A stretch of 32,950 nucleotides of DNA, taken from the NCBI GenBank assembly GCA_020438445.1, contig JAGQUO010000015.1, positions 1 to 32,950 of the forward strand. Direction: 5' to 3'. The stretch is from Solirubrobacterales bacterium. GTDB lineage: Bacteria > Actinomycetota > Thermoleophilia > Solirubrobacterales > 70-9. The notes under the pieces are model-generated. The model worked only from the letters and a program-made list of their open reading frames with translations. It was not told where the DNA came from and did not search any database. How positions within the stretch are numbered: position 1 is the first letter of the stretch; every line of letters starts with the position of its first letter. A program made the position numbers and the translations under genes. Shown here piece by piece: positions 5,003 to 25,893 of the stretch.

Positions 5003-6337
5003 CTAGAGGAAGCGGTCCTCGGCGGGCACCTTCGGCATCTCGCTCGTGATCCTCTGCATCGTGCCGAGGAACCGGTGAACCTCGGGGTAGAGCACCGGCT
5101 TGCCGTTGTTGAGGACCGCGACCGAGATCGCGCGCTCGGGATCGGCCCACGCGAGCATGTTCGTGAAGCCGAGATGCCCGAAAGCGTGCTGGGTGTCGAG
5201 GCCGTAGAGGCTCAGCACCCGCGCCCCGAGCATCAGCCCGTATGAGAACCGGGTCGGGAAACCCAGCGAGAGATCGACCTCGAGGTGCGCGCGCTGGAGG
5301 AGGGCGCGCCGGATCGTGTCGGTCCCGATGACCCTGACGCCGTCGAGCTCACCGCCGCAGCGCATGATCTCGAAGAAGCGCGAGAGCTCGTTCGCCGTGG
5401 TGATCGTGTTCGCGGCCGGGACGATGCCGGTCAGATAGCGCGGGTCGTTGGTGGTCTCGACGAGGTCGTCGAGACCGGTACCGAGCGCGCGGCTGAGGAG
5501 CGTCGACAGCGGCGGGGCCGTTCTCGGCCCGGTGATGTAGTTGACCGCCACCTCGCCGAGATCGCCGGGATCGACCCCGTAGTTGGTCCAGCGGAACCCG
5601 AGCGGGTCGAGGAACTCCTCGGCGAGCACCGTTCGGATGTCCTCACCGGTGACGCTGTGGACGACCTCGCCGAGGATGAAGCCGCCGGAGACCGCGTGGT
5701 AGGCGAGCTGGGTCCCAGGCAGCGTCGCCGGCCGGGCGTCGCAGAGGACCTCACGCAGGTAGTCGCGATCGGAGATGTACCGGAGGTCGAGGGCCTCGCG
5801 CGGCAGGTTCGGAACGCCCGCCTTGTGAGCGAGGACGTGACCGACGGTGATCGAGCGCTTCCCGTGCCGTTCGTAGCCGGGGATGTGCTCGGCGATCGGG
5901 TCCTCGAGGTGCAGGAGCCCGCGCTCGCAGAGCTTGTGGACCACGAACGCCGTGATCGCCTTCGAGGTCGAGTAGACGCAGAACGGAGTGGCGGTCGTGG
6001 CGAGCACCTTCTCGCCGTCGGCCGGGTCGCGGGGTCCGTTGCCGCGGGCGTGGCCGATCGCCCGGTCGAGGACGACCGCGCCGTGGCGGCGGACGCAGAC
6101 CTGCAGCGCCGGGTGGACGCCGCTGCGGTACCAGTCGGTCGCCGCCTTCCAGATCGCCTCGACGTTGCGGCGCTCGACCCCGCCCGCGTCCGGCTCCGCC
6201 TCCTCGCCGATCGTGGTGACCGCATCGAGGTCCTTCGGGATCCGGGCCCGGCGCAGCGGGTCCGGCCCGATCGGGAGCCGGGGGACCGTCGGCAGCCGGT
6301 CGAGCGCCGTGAGCCCCGGGGGGAGCGTCGGTAGCAA
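5003..6337 (-). CDS. Serine hydrolase of the beta-lactamase/EstB family
   Basis: This 444-residue protein belongs to the serine beta-lactamase-like (class C/EstB/esterase) family. The nucleophile motif S-T-S-K (Ser123, Lys126) sits in YSTSKAITAFVVHKL. It is followed by ITVGHVLAHKAGVPN, the second motif Tyr in LAYHAVSGGFILGEV, and the third region GHLGFTN near the C-terminus. No signal peptide or lipobox is visible, so it is probably a cytosolic esterase or peptidase; similar proteins in actinobacteria are annotated as lipases or esterases. The likely start is TTG 6337, because the frame has no ATG or GTG nearby that keeps the N-terminus; this start is uncertain. It lies 29 nt downstream of the short-chain dehydrogenase gene, and the two are probably co-transcribed. 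Confidence 0.85.
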   Translation of the reverse strand: MLPTLPPGLTALDRLPTVPRLPIGPDPLRRARIPKDLDAVTTIGEEAEPDAGGVERRNVEAIWKAATDWYRSGVHPALQVCVRRHGAVVLDRAIGHARGNGPRDPADGEKVLATTATPFCVYSTSKAITAFVVHKLCERGLLHLEDPIAEHIPGYERHGKRSITVGHVLAHKAGVPNLPREALDLRYISDRDYLREVLCDARPATLPGTQLAYHAVSGGFILGEVVHSVTGEDIRTVLAEEFLDPLGFRWTNYGVDPGDLGEVAVNYITGPRTAPPLSTLLSRALGTGLDDLVETTNDPRYLTGIVPAANTITTANELSRFFEIMRCGGELDGVRVIGTDTIRRALLQRAHLEVDLSLGFPTRFSYGLMLGARVLSLYGLDTQHAFGHLGFTNMLAWADPERAISVAVLNNGKPVLYPEVHRFLGTMQRITSEMPKVPAEDRFL

Positions 6338-9630: not shown

Positions 9631-10965
9631 CTAGGCGGGGGCCGGTGCGGGCTTCTTCGACCGTGCCGTCAGGATCGCCTTCGCCCCCTTGCCGGGAACG
9701 ACCGTGATGCTGCGGCGCCGGTGCGCCTCGAGGGCACCGTCGCCGCCCGGGCGAACCTCCATCCTCGCGAGGACGGCGCGGAGGACGATGCCCATCTCGA
9801 GCAGGGCGAAGCTGGCGCCGACGCAGCGGCGGCGACCGCCGCCGAACGGGATCCAGGTGTAGGTGCCCGGCTCGTTCTCCAGGAAGCGCTCGGGCCGGAA
9901 CGCGTAGGGCTCCGGGTAGATGTCGGGGTCGTGATGGACGAGGTAGATGTTCGCGACGACGTGGCATCCCGGCGGGTAGGTGCGCCCGCCGATCGCCGTC
10001 TCGGCGACGACGCGCCGTGGTGCGGCGATCGCCAGGACCGGCCGGCGGCGCAGCGTCTCGCGGATCGTCGCCGTCAGGTACTCGTCGCCGCCGGCGTCGA
10101 CCTCGGACACGAGCGTGCCGAGCGAGGCGGGATTGCGGACGAGACGCTCGAACGCCCACGACAGCTCGGTGGCCGTCGTCTCGTGTCCGGCCACGAGCAG
10201 CGTCATCAGCTCGTCGCGGAGCTCGAGGTCGGACATCGGCGAGCCGTCCTCGTGGCGCGCCAGGAGCAGCATCGAGAGGACGTCGTCGCGATCGCGGTCG
10301 TCGCGCCGGCGCTCGTCGATCAGGGCCCGGATCTCCTCGTCGGTCTGCTCGCGCACCCGCTGGAAGTCGGCCAACGTCGGATGCAGCCGCCCGAGCCGCT
10401 GCGCCTGCGGGATCAGGCTCAGCGGGCTCATCCCGAACCTGAGCATCCTCGCCAGCAGGCCGCGGAGACGGTCGAGGCGCTCCCCCTTCTCGAGGCCGAA
10501 GACGGCGCGGAGGATGACCTCCATCGTCAGGCTCTGCATGTACGGGTGCAGCGGGACCGGCGCCCCGGTCGTCCAACCGTCGACCTCGGACTCGGCGGTC
10601 TCGGTGACGAGGCCGCGCAGGGCCTCCATCTTCTCTCCGTGGAACGCGGGGAGCAGGAGCTTGCGCTGCGTCATGTGGCGTTCCTCGTCCAGGAGCAGGA
10701 TCGAGTTCGGGCCGACGACCGGCAGCAGGATCGATGCGCCCTCACCCGGGTGGAGGACCTCGGGAGGCGCCGTGAAGACCTCCTTGACGTCCTCGGGGCG
10801 GGACATCATCACGAACGGATCGACGCCGAGCAGCCTCAGCGTGAACGTCTTGCCGTACCTGGCCCGGCAGCGCTCGAGATACGGGATTGGCCGGGTCTGC
10901 CACGCGAGCGACTGCCAGACGCGCGGTGCGCCGGGCCCCTTCGGCAGTTCGCTTGCCGCTCCCAT
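9631..10965 (-). CDS. Cytochrome P450
   Basis: This is a soluble bacterial cytochrome P450 of 444 residues (start ATG 10965). The I-helix oxygen-activation motif is LLVAGHETTATE, the K-helix ExxR is RETLRRRP, and the heme loop is PFGGGRRRCVGASFA with the proximal thiolate at Cys381. It looks most like the mycobacterial CYP135/137/138-type group, which is recalled resemblance, not a search. Redox partners are not encoded nearby. The alternative start GTG 10986 lies inside a perfect operator-like palindrome, and a TACCCT -10 ends 8 nt before ATG 10965, so I prefer the ATG. A short Lys/Pro/Ala tail follows the conserved core. Substrate is unknown; linkage to a divergent VOC gene is the only clue. 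Confidence 0.93.
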   Translation of the reverse strand: MGAASELPKGPGAPRVWQSLAWQTRPIPYLERCRARYGKTFTLRLLGVDPFVMMSRPEDVKEVFTAPPEVLHPGEGASILLPVVGPNSILLLDEERHMTQRKLLLPAFHGEKMEALRGLVTETAESEVDGWTTGAPVPLHPYMQSLTMEVILRAVFGLEKGERLDRLRGLLARMLRFGMSPLSLIPQAQRLGRLHPTLADFQRVREQTDEEIRALIDERRRDDRDRDDVLSMLLLARHEDGSPMSDLELRDELMTLLVAGHETTATELSWAFERLVRNPASLGTLVSEVDAGGDEYLTATIRETLRRRPVLAIAAPRRVVAETAIGGRTYPPGCHVVANIYLVHHDPDIYPEPYAFRPERFLENEPGTYTWIPFGGGRRRCVGASFALLEMGIVLRAVLARMEVRPGGDGALEAHRRRSITVVPGKGAKAILTARSKKPAPAPA

Positions 10966-10973
10966 GCCCGTCC

Positions 10974-10979
10974 AGGGTA
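10974..10979 (-). promoter_or_regulatory. Candidate -10 box of the P450 gene
   Basis: TACCCT on the minus strand, 8 nt before ATG 10965, implies a near-leaderless mRNA. The corresponding -35 region falls inside the palindrome at 10982-11005. Confidence 0.4.
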
Positions 10980-10981
10980 CC

Positions 10982-11005
10982 CGCACTGGCTGACCAGCCA
11001 GTGCG
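10982..11005. promoter_or_regulatory. Operator-like perfect palindrome between P450 and VOC genes
   Basis: The arms CGCACTGGCT (10982-10991) and AGCCAGTGCG (10996-11005) are exact reverse complements around GACC. The size and 4-bp spacer suit a homodimeric repressor such as a TetR-family protein. It overlaps the predicted -35 of the P450 promoter and sits just upstream of the VOC promoter, so one regulator could control both. No regulator gene lies adjacent. Confidence 0.6.
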
Positions 11006-11029
11006 ACCTCGTCACACTTGCCACGCGGT

Positions 11030-11035
11030 TAGGCT
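11030..11035 (+). promoter_or_regulatory. Candidate -10 box of the VOC gene
   Basis: TAGGCT ends 6 nt before ATG 11042 and no RBS is present, which fits a leaderless transcript. Confidence 0.4.
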
Positions 11036-11041
11036 CGGTCG

Positions 11042-11410
11042 ATGCGCCTCAACCACTTCACCCTGCCGTCGCGCGACGTCGAGCGTGCCGCGAAGTTCTA
11101 CCGACGCCTGGGCCTGACCCAGATCGTCGCGAGCTATCCCGACTACGCGCGGTTCGTCGCCGAGGGGGACGTGACGCTCTCGCTCCACCGCGACGAGGTG
11201 GCGGTTCCGGGAGCGAGCGTCCATTTCGAGGTGAGTGACGTCGACGCGACCGTCGCCGGCCTGCGCGACGCGGGTCTCGAGATCGAGTCCGAGCCGGTCG
11301 ACCAGCCCTACCTCTGGCGCGAGGCGACCCTGCTCGACCCGGACGGGAACCGGGTCTTCGTCTACCACGCGGGTGAGATGCGGCTCAACCCGCCGTGGCG
11401 GATCGCCTGA
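11042..11410 (+). CDS. VOC/glyoxalase-bleomycin resistance superfamily protein
   Basis: This 122-residue single-module vicinal-oxygen-chelate protein is dominated by two beta-alpha-beta-beta-beta repeats. It begins MRLNHFTLPSRDVERAAKFY, where the early His and the SRDVERAAKFYRRLG block are typical. It continues with HFEVSDVDATVAGL and ends with ATLLDPDGNRVFVYH, the usual second module with the acidic/aromatic metal-site region. It probably functions as a dimer, as a lyase, isomerase, dioxygenase or binding protein; the reaction cannot be specified. It is preceded by a leaderless-type -10 box and shares the palindromic control region with the P450. It converges on the SnoaL-like gene with only 10 nt between stops. 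Confidence 0.85.
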   Translation: MRLNHFTLPSRDVERAAKFYRRLGLTQIVASYPDYARFVAEGDVTLSLHRDEVAVPGASVHFEVSDVDATVAGLRDAGLEIESEPVDQPYLWREATLLDPDGNRVFVYHAGEMRLNPPWRIA

Positions 11411-11880: not shown

Positions 11881-12288
11881 TCAGTCTCCTGAGGTCGCGC
11901 GCTCGTCGGCGTCGTTCAGCTCGATCAGCTCGATCCGGTAGTCGTCGGGATCGCGGACGAAGCAGAGGCGCGAACCGCCCTCGCGAACCGTGTACGGCGG
12001 CTTCTCCGGCTCGATGCCGAGCTCGGCGAGTCGCGCCAGGGTGCCGTCCATGTCACCGACGGTGATCGCGATGTGGCCGTATCCGGTGCCGATCTCGTAC
12101 GGATCGGTGACGTCGTGGTTGTGGGTCAGCTCGAGCCTGGCACCGTCGCCGGGCAGCCCCATGAATATGTTGGTGGCGTCGTCGCCGATCGGCATCCGGT
12201 GGAGCACCTCGAAGCCGAGCTTCTCGTAGAAGTCGACCGACGCCTCCGGGTCGAGGATCCGATAGCAGGTGTGGATCAGCTCGCTCAT
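11881..12288 (-). CDS. Lactoylglutathione lyase-like (glyoxalase I) VOC protein
   Basis: This 135-residue VOC protein resembles glyoxalase I. It opens with IHTCYRILDPEASVDFYEKLGFEV (first His ligand region). RLELTHNHDVTDPYEIGTGYGHIAITV supplies a Glu and the second His, and YRIELIEL supplies the last Glu. This full set of ligands fits a metal-dependent GloA-type enzyme, which converts the hemithioacetal of methylglyoxal and a thiol to a thioester. Actinobacteria usually lack glutathione, so a different thiol such as mycothiol, or another substrate, is likely. A TAGGCT -10 ends 7 nt before ATG 12288, with no RBS, so a leaderless mRNA is likely. Confidence 0.85.
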   Translation of the reverse strand: MSELIHTCYRILDPEASVDFYEKLGFEVLHRMPIGDDATNIFMGLPGDGARLELTHNHDVTDPYEIGTGYGHIAITVGDMDGTLARLAELGIEPEKPPYTVREGGSRLCFVRDPDDYRIELIELNDADERATSGD

Positions 12289-24444: not shown

Positions 24445-25893
24445 TCAGAGCGGGAGCTTCGCCTCGAAGCGGGCGCCGCCGCCGGGGGCGTTCCCGGCCC
24501 GGGCCGACCCGCCGTGAGCCGCAGCGACCTCGGCGACGATCGCGAGTCCGAGGCCCGCGCCCCCGGTCGCGCGGCTGCGCGCCTCACCGCCGCGCCAGAA
24601 CCGGCCGAAGATCTCAGCGCCGGCGCCGTCGGGAAGCCCGGGGCCGTGATCGCGGACGCCGAGGACCGCATCGCCGCCGGCAGCGCGGACGCTCACGTCG
24701 ATCGCACCGTCGCCATGGGCGATGGCATTGGCGAGCAGGTTTGCGACCAGCCGGCGCAGCTGGTCCGGGTCGCCGGAGACGACGACGCCGGCGGCGGCCT
24801 CGAGCCCGACCTTCCGGTCCGGGGCGGCGATCGCCGCGTCGGCCACTGCATCCGCCGCGAGCGCGGTCAGGTCGACGCGCTCGCGGCGCGGCTCGCGGAG
24901 CTCGTCGAGGCGCGCGAGGGTGAGGAGATCATCGACCAGGACGCTCATCCGCTCCGACTCCTCCTCGATCCGGCGCATCGAGCGCTCGAGATCGCCGGGC
25001 TCGGCCCCGGCCCCGAGGCGGAAGACCTCGGCATAGCCGCGGATGGAGCTGAGTGGCGTCCGCAGCTCGTGGGAGGCGTCGGCGAGGAACTGCCGCAGCC
25101 GCTCCTCGCTCGCCCGCTGCTCGTCGAAGGCCTGCTCGAGCCGCCCGAGCATCGAGTTGAAGGCGATCCCGAGCCGTCCGGCCTCGGTCCGCTCGTCGAC
25201 GTCCTCGACCCGGTGCGACATGTCGCCTGCGGCGATCTCCCCCGCGGTCTCCTCGATCCGCGCCAGCGGCCGGAGGCCGACGCGGACGGCCCACCAGCTG
25301 AGGGCGGCGAGCGCCGCCAGCGTTGCGAAGCCGACCACGAGCTCGATCGCCCGGACCCGGGCGAGGGTGTCGTCGAGATCGGTGAGCGGGATCGCGGCGG
25401 CCACGGTCTCTCCCCCGGGGCCCGAGAGGGTCGCGACCCGGAACCCGCTGCCGCCCGACGACGACGGGACGTCGACCAGCGGCTCGCCCTCGAAGCCGGC
25501 GTTCCCGGGCAGGTCGCCGGGCAACTCGGGAATCGGCGTCTCGCCGGTCTCCCCGTCGCCGCGTCCGGGATCGTCGCTGACCGTCCGGGCCGCCAGGACC
25601 GTTCCGTCGGGCCCGCTGATCTGCCCGTACGTGCCGGCGGGCAGCTGCGGCCCGATCGGCCCGCCGTCGCTCGGGCCGCCGCCGGGGTCGCCCGCCTCAT
25701 CCGGCGGGAGCGGCAAGCCGGCTCCCTGGGGCCCGAGGAAACGAACCACGAGCGGCACCGCGTCGCGCGCCTGCTGATCGACCCGGTCCGACAGATACGA
25801 GCGCAGGGCCAGGTAGGAGACCACGCCGAGCGTCAGCAGCCCGAGCGCGGAGATCGCGACGAGGATCAGCACCAGCCGGCGGCTGAGCGGCAT
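24445..25893 (-). CDS. Sensor histidine kinase (HAMP, EnvZ/OmpR class)
   Basis: This is a 482-residue membrane kinase. The first membrane helix is at about residues 8-30, then a periplasmic-side loop (31-183) rich in Gly, Pro and Asp, then the second helix at about 184-204. HAMP follows with RPLARIEETAGEIAAGDMSHRV. The H-box is FLADASHELRTPLSS with phospho-accepting His275. The N-box NLLANAIAHGD, G1 DHGPGLP, F-box FGRFWRG and G2 GGAGLGLAIV complete the ATPase. It starts 1 nt after the response regulator stop and is the last gene of the permease-ATPase-regulator-kinase run. The Pro/Gly-rich sensor loop has no recognised domain; sensing of envelope stress or a drug is inferred. Confidence 0.93.
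   Translation of the reverse strand: MPLSRRLVLILVAISALGLLTLGVVSYLALRSYLSDRVDQQARDAVPLVVRFLGPQGAGLPLPPDEAGDPGGGPSDGGPIGPQLPAGTYGQISGPDGTVLAARTVSDDPGRGDGETGETPIPELPGDLPGNAGFEGEPLVDVPSSSGGSGFRVATLSGPGGETVAAAIPLTDLDDTLARVRAIELVVGFATLAALAALSWWAVRVGLRPLARIEETAGEIAAGDMSHRVEDVDERTEAGRLGIAFNSMLGRLEQAFDEQRASEERLRQFLADASHELRTPLSSIRGYAEVFRLGAGAEPGDLERSMRRIEEESERMSVLVDDLLTLARLDELREPRRERVDLTALAADAVADAAIAAPDRKVGLEAAAGVVVSGDPDQLRRLVANLLANAIAHGDGAIDVSVRAAGGDAVLGVRDHGPGLPDGAGAEIFGRFWRGGEARSRATGGAGLGLAIVAEVAAAHGGSARAGNAPGGGARFEAKLPL

What the first reader, a model, noticed from the sequence alone, without database searches (positions are those of the whole stretch)
10974..11035. Perfect operator-like palindrome controlling a divergent P450 and VOC pair
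CGCACTGGCT-GACC-AGCCAGTGCG covers the predicted -35 of the P450 and abuts the VOC promoter. Both genes have leaderless-type -10 boxes (TACCCT, TAGGCT). It also overlaps an alternative GTG start of the P450, arguing for the ATG. One dimeric repressor, probably encoded elsewhere, could switch both genes, hinting that the two enzymes act on related substrates.
Basis: partly seen in the sequence, partly recalled or inferred. Interest (0 to 1): 0.55.

Follow-up and report, generated by a model that had tools for sequence, protein, structure and literature searches.

The report
Operator of a lipid-oxidation gene network
The palindrome beside this P450 gene is one of many copies of a DNA switch that soil actinobacteria of the order Solirubrobacterales place in front of fat- and sterol-type oxidation genes, and its likely controlling repressor can be named, while the neighbouring VOC gene looks like a late bystander.

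Summary
It abuts the P450 -10 box. It is not a private switch of a P450/VOC pair. The core, consensus MCTGGCYRNNYRGCCAGK, recurs in the same genome upstream of a second P450, a diiron-SCP2 protein and an aldehyde dehydrogenase. Across Solirubrobacterales it recurs upstream of P450s, diiron oxidases, acyl-CoA dehydrogenases, thiolases, FMO, GMC oxidoreductases and rubredoxin: 91 of 121 distinct sites lie within 120 bp of a start codon. The best regulator candidate is a TetR protein, G000:C166:3059-3649. Its orthologs co-occur with the sites: 212 sites in 89 genomes that have it, 15 in 72 that lack it. The association fails in family f3. In 8 of 44 orthologs examined an operator-like palindrome abuts the TetR gene's own -10 region. 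The P450-VOC pairing is not conserved: Conexibacter sp. QR_Bin.2 keeps the palindrome with its P450 but lacks this VOC, and for the VOC promoter the operator lies 27 nt from the -10. I read it as a KstR/FadR-like repressor regulon with its own operator. All of this is comparative genomics; no bench test.

The parts
10982..11005 (.). perfect 24-bp palindrome, 11-nt arms, centre AC
   Evidence: conserved with a changed centre base in L119 (Conexibacter sp. QR_Bin.2)
10985..11002 (.). 18-bp operator core ACTGGCTGACCAGCCAGT, consensus MCTGGCYRNNYRGCCAGK
   Evidence: position matrix from 46 upstream sites; exact copies elsewhere
10974..10979 (-). TACCCT, proposed -10 of the P450, 5 nt from the operator core and 8 nt before the ATG (leaderless type)
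   Evidence: same spacing class in 18 of 21 targets with a TANNNT within 9 nt of the site
9631..10965 (-). cytochrome P450 gene (ATG start), main target of the operator
   Evidence: Pfam PF00067 7e-65; orthologs 84% and 76% in the same genus with the same start
11030..11035 (+). TAGGCT, proposed -10 of the VOC gene, 27 nt from the operator core
11042..11410 (+). VOC/glyoxalase-fold protein, divergent neighbour; membership in the regulon doubtful
   Evidence: Pfam PF00903 2.8e-14; no close relative in 60 related genomes

Best explanation
The palindrome is the operator of a TetR-family repressor that controls an order-wide set of lipid- or hydrophobe-oxidising genes in Solirubrobacterales. A dimer of the TetR encoded at G000:C166:3059-3649 (197 aa, recognition region VSRGLLHYYF) binds the 18-bp core. 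The core occupies the spacer/-35 region of the P450 promoter, so RNA polymerase cannot bind. A ligand, most likely an acyl-CoA or other lipid-derived intermediate, releases the dimer and the leaderless P450 mRNA is made. Shown by computation: the recurrence of the site, its position against -10 boxes, the kinds of target gene, the co-occurrence with this TetR group, and operator-like sites before the TetR gene itself in eight genera. Inferred: binding, repression, the ligand, and any effect on the VOC gene.
For: Exact or near-exact sites elsewhere in the same genome lie before another P450 paired with an FMN reductase, a diiron-SCP2 protein (L195) and an aldehyde dehydrogenase (L118). Of 121 distinct exact consensus sites in fetched loci, 91 have a start codon within 120 bp downstream: 27 sites before P450s, 17 before RNR-R2-like diiron proteins, 6 before acyl-CoA dehydrogenases, others before thiolase, 3-hydroxyacyl-CoA dehydrogenase, MaoC, FMO, GMC, ALDH, SDR, rubredoxin (Pfam). 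The core lies 0-9 nt upstream of TANNNT in 21 of 36 hand-picked site-target pairs. Co-occurrence: family f1 112 sites in 25 TetR+ genomes, 6 in 25 TetR-; f2 81 in 39, 4 in 36; backward-pattern controls 10/22 and 37/20. Within genus g8, G009 has neither. Five of the six f1 TetR- sites were fetched and all five lie inside genes. In 8 of 44 TetR orthologs an operator with 0-2 of 14 mismatches abuts the TetR gene's own -10 region, in eight genera. In 9 of 25 f1 TetR+ genomes the TetR gene lies 1.5-12.5 kb from a site (places). The same-genus relative keeps the full 24-bp palindrome.
Against: Family f3 shows no association (17 sites in 21 TetR+, 5 in 10 TetR-, p 0.51), and 24 of 89 TetR+ genomes have no exact site. 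In f1, including the window's genome, the TetR gene itself has no correctly placed operator. Only 2 TetR groups were profiled over genomes, out of 21 TetR_N matches in this genome, so a co-inherited regulator is not formally excluded. Genomes are related, so genome-level p-values overstate (genus-level p 9e-6). In f2 the backward control is also somewhat higher in TetR+ genomes (p 0.07). Thirty of 121 sites are not within 120 bp upstream of a called gene start. No binding, expression or ligand data exist here.
Confidence: 0.82

Rival explanations
1. A local switch that co-regulates the divergent P450 and VOC so that both enzymes act on related substrates.
For: The palindrome lies between both promoters; divergent pairs do share a site elsewhere, e.g. 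thiolase/3-hydroxyacyl-CoA dehydrogenase and SDR/aminotransferase-like genes.
Against: The pair is not conserved: G002 keeps palindrome and P450 with another gene in the VOC's place; the operator is 27 nt from the VOC -10 against 0-9 nt elsewhere; the VOC has no close relative in 60 related genomes.
Confidence: 0.15
2. The operator belongs to a different regulator that is co-inherited with the L169-type TetR, for example one of the other TetR proteins or a non-TetR factor.
For: A second TetR (TetR-B) has an operator-like site just upstream in two species; most regulators of the genome were not profiled.
Against: TetR-B is absent as a close ortholog from g1, g9 and g2, which carry the sites, present in G009, which has none, and has the site in only 2 of 15 orthologs. 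The L169 type carries operator-like sites on its own promoter in eight genera.
Confidence: 0.13
3. Chance inverted repeat, terminator or RNA hairpin without a protein reader.
For: In this G+C-rich window perfect 11-bp repeats are not extremely rare (3 observed, 0.3 expected).
Against: The same bases, not just complementarity, recur in front of functionally related genes in many genera; no terminator and no Rfam match; it lies upstream of the proposed transcription start.
Confidence: 0.02

Closest known systems
KstR (Rv3574) lipid/cholesterol-degradation regulon of mycobacteria
   Same: TetR-type repressor; short palindrome with a 2-nt centre overlapping the -10 region; many scattered lipid-degradation genes plus its own promoter (PMC1995591, passages read).
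   Different: KstR operator core is TnnAACnnGTTnnA; here MCTGGCYRNNYRGCCAGK. The gene set here is rich in P450s and RNR-like diiron proteins, and the order is different.
TetR-type FadR regulators of fatty-acid degradation (Bacillus, Thermus, Sulfolobus)
   Same: TetR fold and beta-oxidation targets such as acyl-CoA dehydrogenase and thiolase (a Sulfolobus case, PMC6449355, seen only as a listing and abstract start; the rest recalled).
   Different: Operator and ligand not compared; PDB entries named fatty acid metabolism regulator are only distant sequence matches (E about 1e-6 to 4e-5).
MbdR and the pksA-related TetR structure 2gfn
   Same: Closest solved sequences to the L169 TetR (E 5e-12 and 2e-12).
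   Different: Distant; MbdR is a methylbenzoate-pathway regulator (recalled), with no link to P450 regulons known to me.
Escherichia coli FadR
   Same: Its operator (recalled: AACTGGTCNGACCAGTT) shares the ACTGG...CCAGT ends.
   Different: GntR-type protein and a shorter centre; the protein here is TetR-type.

Membership tests
TetR-family regulator with palindromic operator | TetR N-terminal HTH domain | tested here: met
   L169 TetR: PF00440 44.8 bits over cut-off, plus TetR_C_31 and TetR_C_6
TetR-family regulator with palindromic operator | palindromic operator overlapping core promoters | tested here: met
   0-9 nt from TANNNT in 21 of 36 hand-picked site-target pairs
TetR-family regulator with palindromic operator | autoregulation site at own gene (common, not universal) | tested here: inconclusive
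   8 of 44 orthologs, all in f2/f3; none correctly placed in f1
TetR-family regulator with palindromic operator | dimer binding and ligand release | not testable with these tools
   needs protein work
KstR regulon | operator TnnAACnnGTTnnA | tested here: not met
   the core here lacks AACnnGTT (motif)
KstR regulon | many scattered lipid-degradation targets | tested here: met
   acyl-CoA dehydrogenase, thiolase, 3HCDH, MaoC, P450, GMC
KstR regulon | regulator orthologous to KstR | not tested
   no direct comparison with the KstR sequence was made; no chain named KstR among the 60 shown of 81 PDB matches
E. coli FadR | GntR-type protein | tested here: not met
   only TetR families matched

The most novel reading that the evidence does not exclude
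A previously undescribed TetR repressor is the master switch for oxygenase-led breakdown of sterol-like or long-chain hydrophobic compounds across Solirubrobacterales. It acts on leaderless promoters in which the operator itself fills the -35/spacer, and one sensor couples five or more P450 types, RNR-R2-like diiron oxidases fused to SCP2 sterol-carrier domains, and beta-oxidation.
Probability: 0.4. Interest if true: 0.62.

Novelty: new member of a known kind. Interest (0 to 1): 0.47.

Why it matters
It turns one palindrome into a testable operator-regulator pair for an order of common, poorly cultured soil actinobacteria, in which five literature searches showed me no described lipid regulon. 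It gives a rule for finding which of the many P450 and diiron-oxidase genes are part of lipid or hydrophobe catabolism, and it shows that the eye-catching divergent VOC partner is probably incidental.

Tried and rejected
TetR-B (L204:4039-4707, L088:4085-4777) looked like the regulator because a site lies just upstream, but close orthologs occur only in g11 and g8 and the site is present in 2 of 15. The TetR next to the rlmN-P450 locus (L090, L136) was set aside: its best match in this genome is only 41-42% identical (L176). A weak site 315 bp upstream of another TetR (L161) was judged too far and too degenerate. A LysR gene next to a P450 in L086 was seen once only. Terminator, sigma-70 consensus and Rfam scans were empty. 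Literature searches for the motif string and for Solirubrobacterales/Thermoleophilia/Conexibacter regulators gave nothing relevant (also 59 and 74 on TetR regulons in general); most subscription papers are not held. misread the strand of minus-strand TetR hits and was redone; one search crashed and was redone. The gene caller used in scripts is a simple GC-by-codon-position scorer of my own, so gene starts are approximate (it called the L119 site 'inside' a gene because of an overlong start).

Full report
Observation. The stretch 10982-11005 reads CGCACTGGCTG-AC-CAGCCAGTGCG, a perfect inverted repeat with 11-nt arms. In the window there is no second copy with up to 3 mismatches. Three perfect repeats with arms of 11 or more occur in the window against 0.3 on average in 20 shuffles, and a random 76-bp stretch holds one (spacer 4 or less) in 10 of 17,320 cases. 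So length alone is mildly unusual for the window, and rare for this gap. The ATG start is also the start of the two same-genus orthologs.

Where it comes from. The window is contig C77 of a 2.69-Mb genome in 259 contigs. The P450's closest named relatives are MAGs of Conexibacter sp. QR_Bin.2 (84%), Actinomycetes bacterium BroJett022 (76%), an Actinobacteria bacterium (69%), a Thermoleophilia bacterium and a Solirubrobacterales bacterium (59% each). I therefore call the group Solirubrobacterales, an inference from these names.

Other copies in the same genome. With up to 3 mismatches to the 20-mer, one further place appears, C259:9327-9346. It lies between another P450 (PF00067) and a divergent NADPH-dependent FMN reductase (PF03358). 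With the refined consensus two more exact sites appear (4 in this genome). One is before an RNR-R2-like protein carrying an SCP-2 sterol-transfer domain (L195), the other before an aldehyde dehydrogenase (L118).

A regulon. The pattern ACTGGCYGNNCRGCCAGT was sought in 50 family genomes, the surroundings of listed sites were fetched, and the consensus was refined to MCTGGCYRNNYRGCCAGK. In all loci held there were 121 distinct exact sites. Of these, 91 have a called start within 120 bp downstream. By homology to reference proteins (most typed by Pfam, the rest by resemblance), 27 sites precede P450s, 9 diiron-SCP2 proteins, 8 short diiron proteins, 6 acyl-CoA dehydrogenases, 4 ALDH, 4 SDR, 3 thiolases, 3 penicillin amidases, 3 alpha/beta hydrolases, 2 each of 3-hydroxyacyl-CoA dehydrogenase, MaoC, FMO, GMC and FMN reductase, and 1 each of rubredoxin and an AMP-forming ligase; 29 sites have at least one unlabelled target. 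Thirty sites have no such start: some lie inside genes, others near contig ends or miscalled starts. The same kinds of target recur in a second family, f2.

Promoter geometry. In 36 hand-picked site-target pairs, 22 have a TANNNT between site and start. In 21 of them it begins 0-9 nt after the 18-bp core, and in 18 of those 21 it lies 6-9 nt before the start codon (leaderless type); three diiron genes have leaders of 37-58 nt instead. For the window's P450 the offset is 5 nt; for the VOC it is 27 nt, the only outlier. In 14 of the 36 no TANNNT was found. The operator thus sits where it would block the P450 promoter.

The P450-VOC pair. Of five P450 relatives checked, the closest (L119 = L079) keeps the entire 24-bp palindrome with one changed centre base. 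L120 (G001) has only a degenerate palindrome at the same place, and L121-L123 have none. In L079 a different gene follows the palindrome. The VOC itself has no close relative in the two same-genus genomes, and its best hit outside its own genome is 44% identical among 60 relatives. The operator therefore goes with the P450, and the VOC is probably a later neighbour; whether it is regulated is open.

The regulator. The genome has 21 TetR_N matches. A first candidate, TetR-B, was rejected (see Tried and rejected). A second, the L169 TetR (G000:C166:3059-3649), was noticed because its ortholog in G033 lies near two regulon sites. Its orthologs (39-99% identity, E 4e-36 or better) are clearly separated from other TetRs (best remaining full-length hits E about 3e-19; a 69% fragment in G027 apart). 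Against exact site counts, one search gives: f1 TetR+ 25 genomes 112 sites, TetR- 25 genomes 6 sites (Mann-Whitney 1.5e-8); f2 39 genomes 81, 36 genomes 4 (8e-10); f3 21 genomes 17, 10 genomes 5 (0.51, no association); f4 4 genomes 2, 1 genome 0. The backward-pattern control does not separate the groups overall (0.47), though f2 leans (0.07). At genus-by-status level (32 against 24 groups) p is 9e-6. Genomes are related, so these numbers describe, they do not prove. One search scored at most 20 candidates per genome and did not list 33 matchless genomes by name, which I took as TetR-. In genus g8 the one genome without the TetR (G009) has no site while the other two have 7 and 3. Five of the six sites in f1 TetR- genomes were fetched and all five lie inside genes.

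Autoregulation. Upstream stretches of 45 orthologs (25 of 25 in f1, 20 of 64 in f2-f4) were taken; one (G021) was too short. Of 44, eight have an operator with 0-2 mismatches in 14 positions abutting the -10 region of the TetR gene: G103 and G135 (0), G038, G055, G094, G104 (1), G049, G079 (2), in eight genera of f2 and f3. At most 1.5% of shuffles did as well in any of these. A ninth, G027, has 2 mismatches but lies far from the start. No f1 genome has a correctly placed one, the window's genome included. In f1 the TetR gene instead lies 1.5-12.5 kb from a site in 9 of 25 genomes (G001, G019, G020, G023, G029, G031, G033, G072, G073; places), often with the diiron gene in the neighbourhood; this shared synteny is not nine independent events.

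Function. The target list (P450s, FMO, diiron proteins with SCP-2 domain, GMC oxidoreductase, rubredoxin, ALDH, acyl-CoA dehydrogenases, 3-hydroxyacyl-CoA dehydrogenase, thiolase, MaoC) is that of an oxygenase-led route feeding beta-oxidation. The window's P450 has as its best solved sequence matches the CYP51 sterol demethylases (E 6e-33), a distant relation only. The ligand is unknown; an acyl-CoA or steroid-CoA is the natural guess by analogy with KstR and FadR systems.

Known systems. KstR of mycobacteria works in the same way: a 14-bp palindrome TAGAAC-N2-GTTCTA overlapping the -10 and a large lipid regulon (PMC1995591, passages). The operator sequence is different, so this is not the KstR regulon. 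PMC4482099 (passages) says that palindromes separated by a small number of bases are the classical form for TetR proteins. Searches for the motif string and for the order found nothing that describes it (listings only).

Verdict. It is a new operator-regulator pair of a known kind.

Noticed in passing
L195:2276-3547 (G000:C144), L193:5475-6761, L085:4066-5337: RNR-R2-like diiron protein of about 425 aa, fused to an SCP-2 sterol-carrier domain in the member typed (L195), common in the order and a frequent regulon target; substrate unknown.
   Followed up: partly
L204:3261-4707, L088:3457-4777: Tandem TetR genes of an expanded subfamily (up to 41 matches per genome in genus g11) with an operator-like site upstream in two species only.
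   Followed up: partly
L327:2877, L339:2902: Operator-like sites between the TetR gene and a downstream membrane-protein gene (MMPL-like by eye) in two f3 genomes; a possible transporter target.
   Followed up: no
L260, 64-47 bp upstream of the diiron gene: A different perfect palindrome TGTCATCGATTGATGACA before the diiron gene in genus g12, perhaps another regulator.
   Followed up: no
window 11881-12288: A second VOC/glyoxalase gene, unlike the one at 11042, is kept next to the P450 in both same-genus genomes.
   Followed up: partly
window 24853-24888 and 5453-5476: Two other long perfect inverted repeats (13-nt arms with 10-nt spacer; 11-nt arms with 2-nt spacer), not examined.
   Followed up: no
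G000:C236:4800-4817 and G002:C150:29487-29504: An identical site ACTGGTTGACTGACCAGT in both genomes, in G002 19 bp before an acyl-CoA dehydrogenase gene; two substitutions from the consensus but symmetrical, so the motif may be broader.
   Followed up: partly
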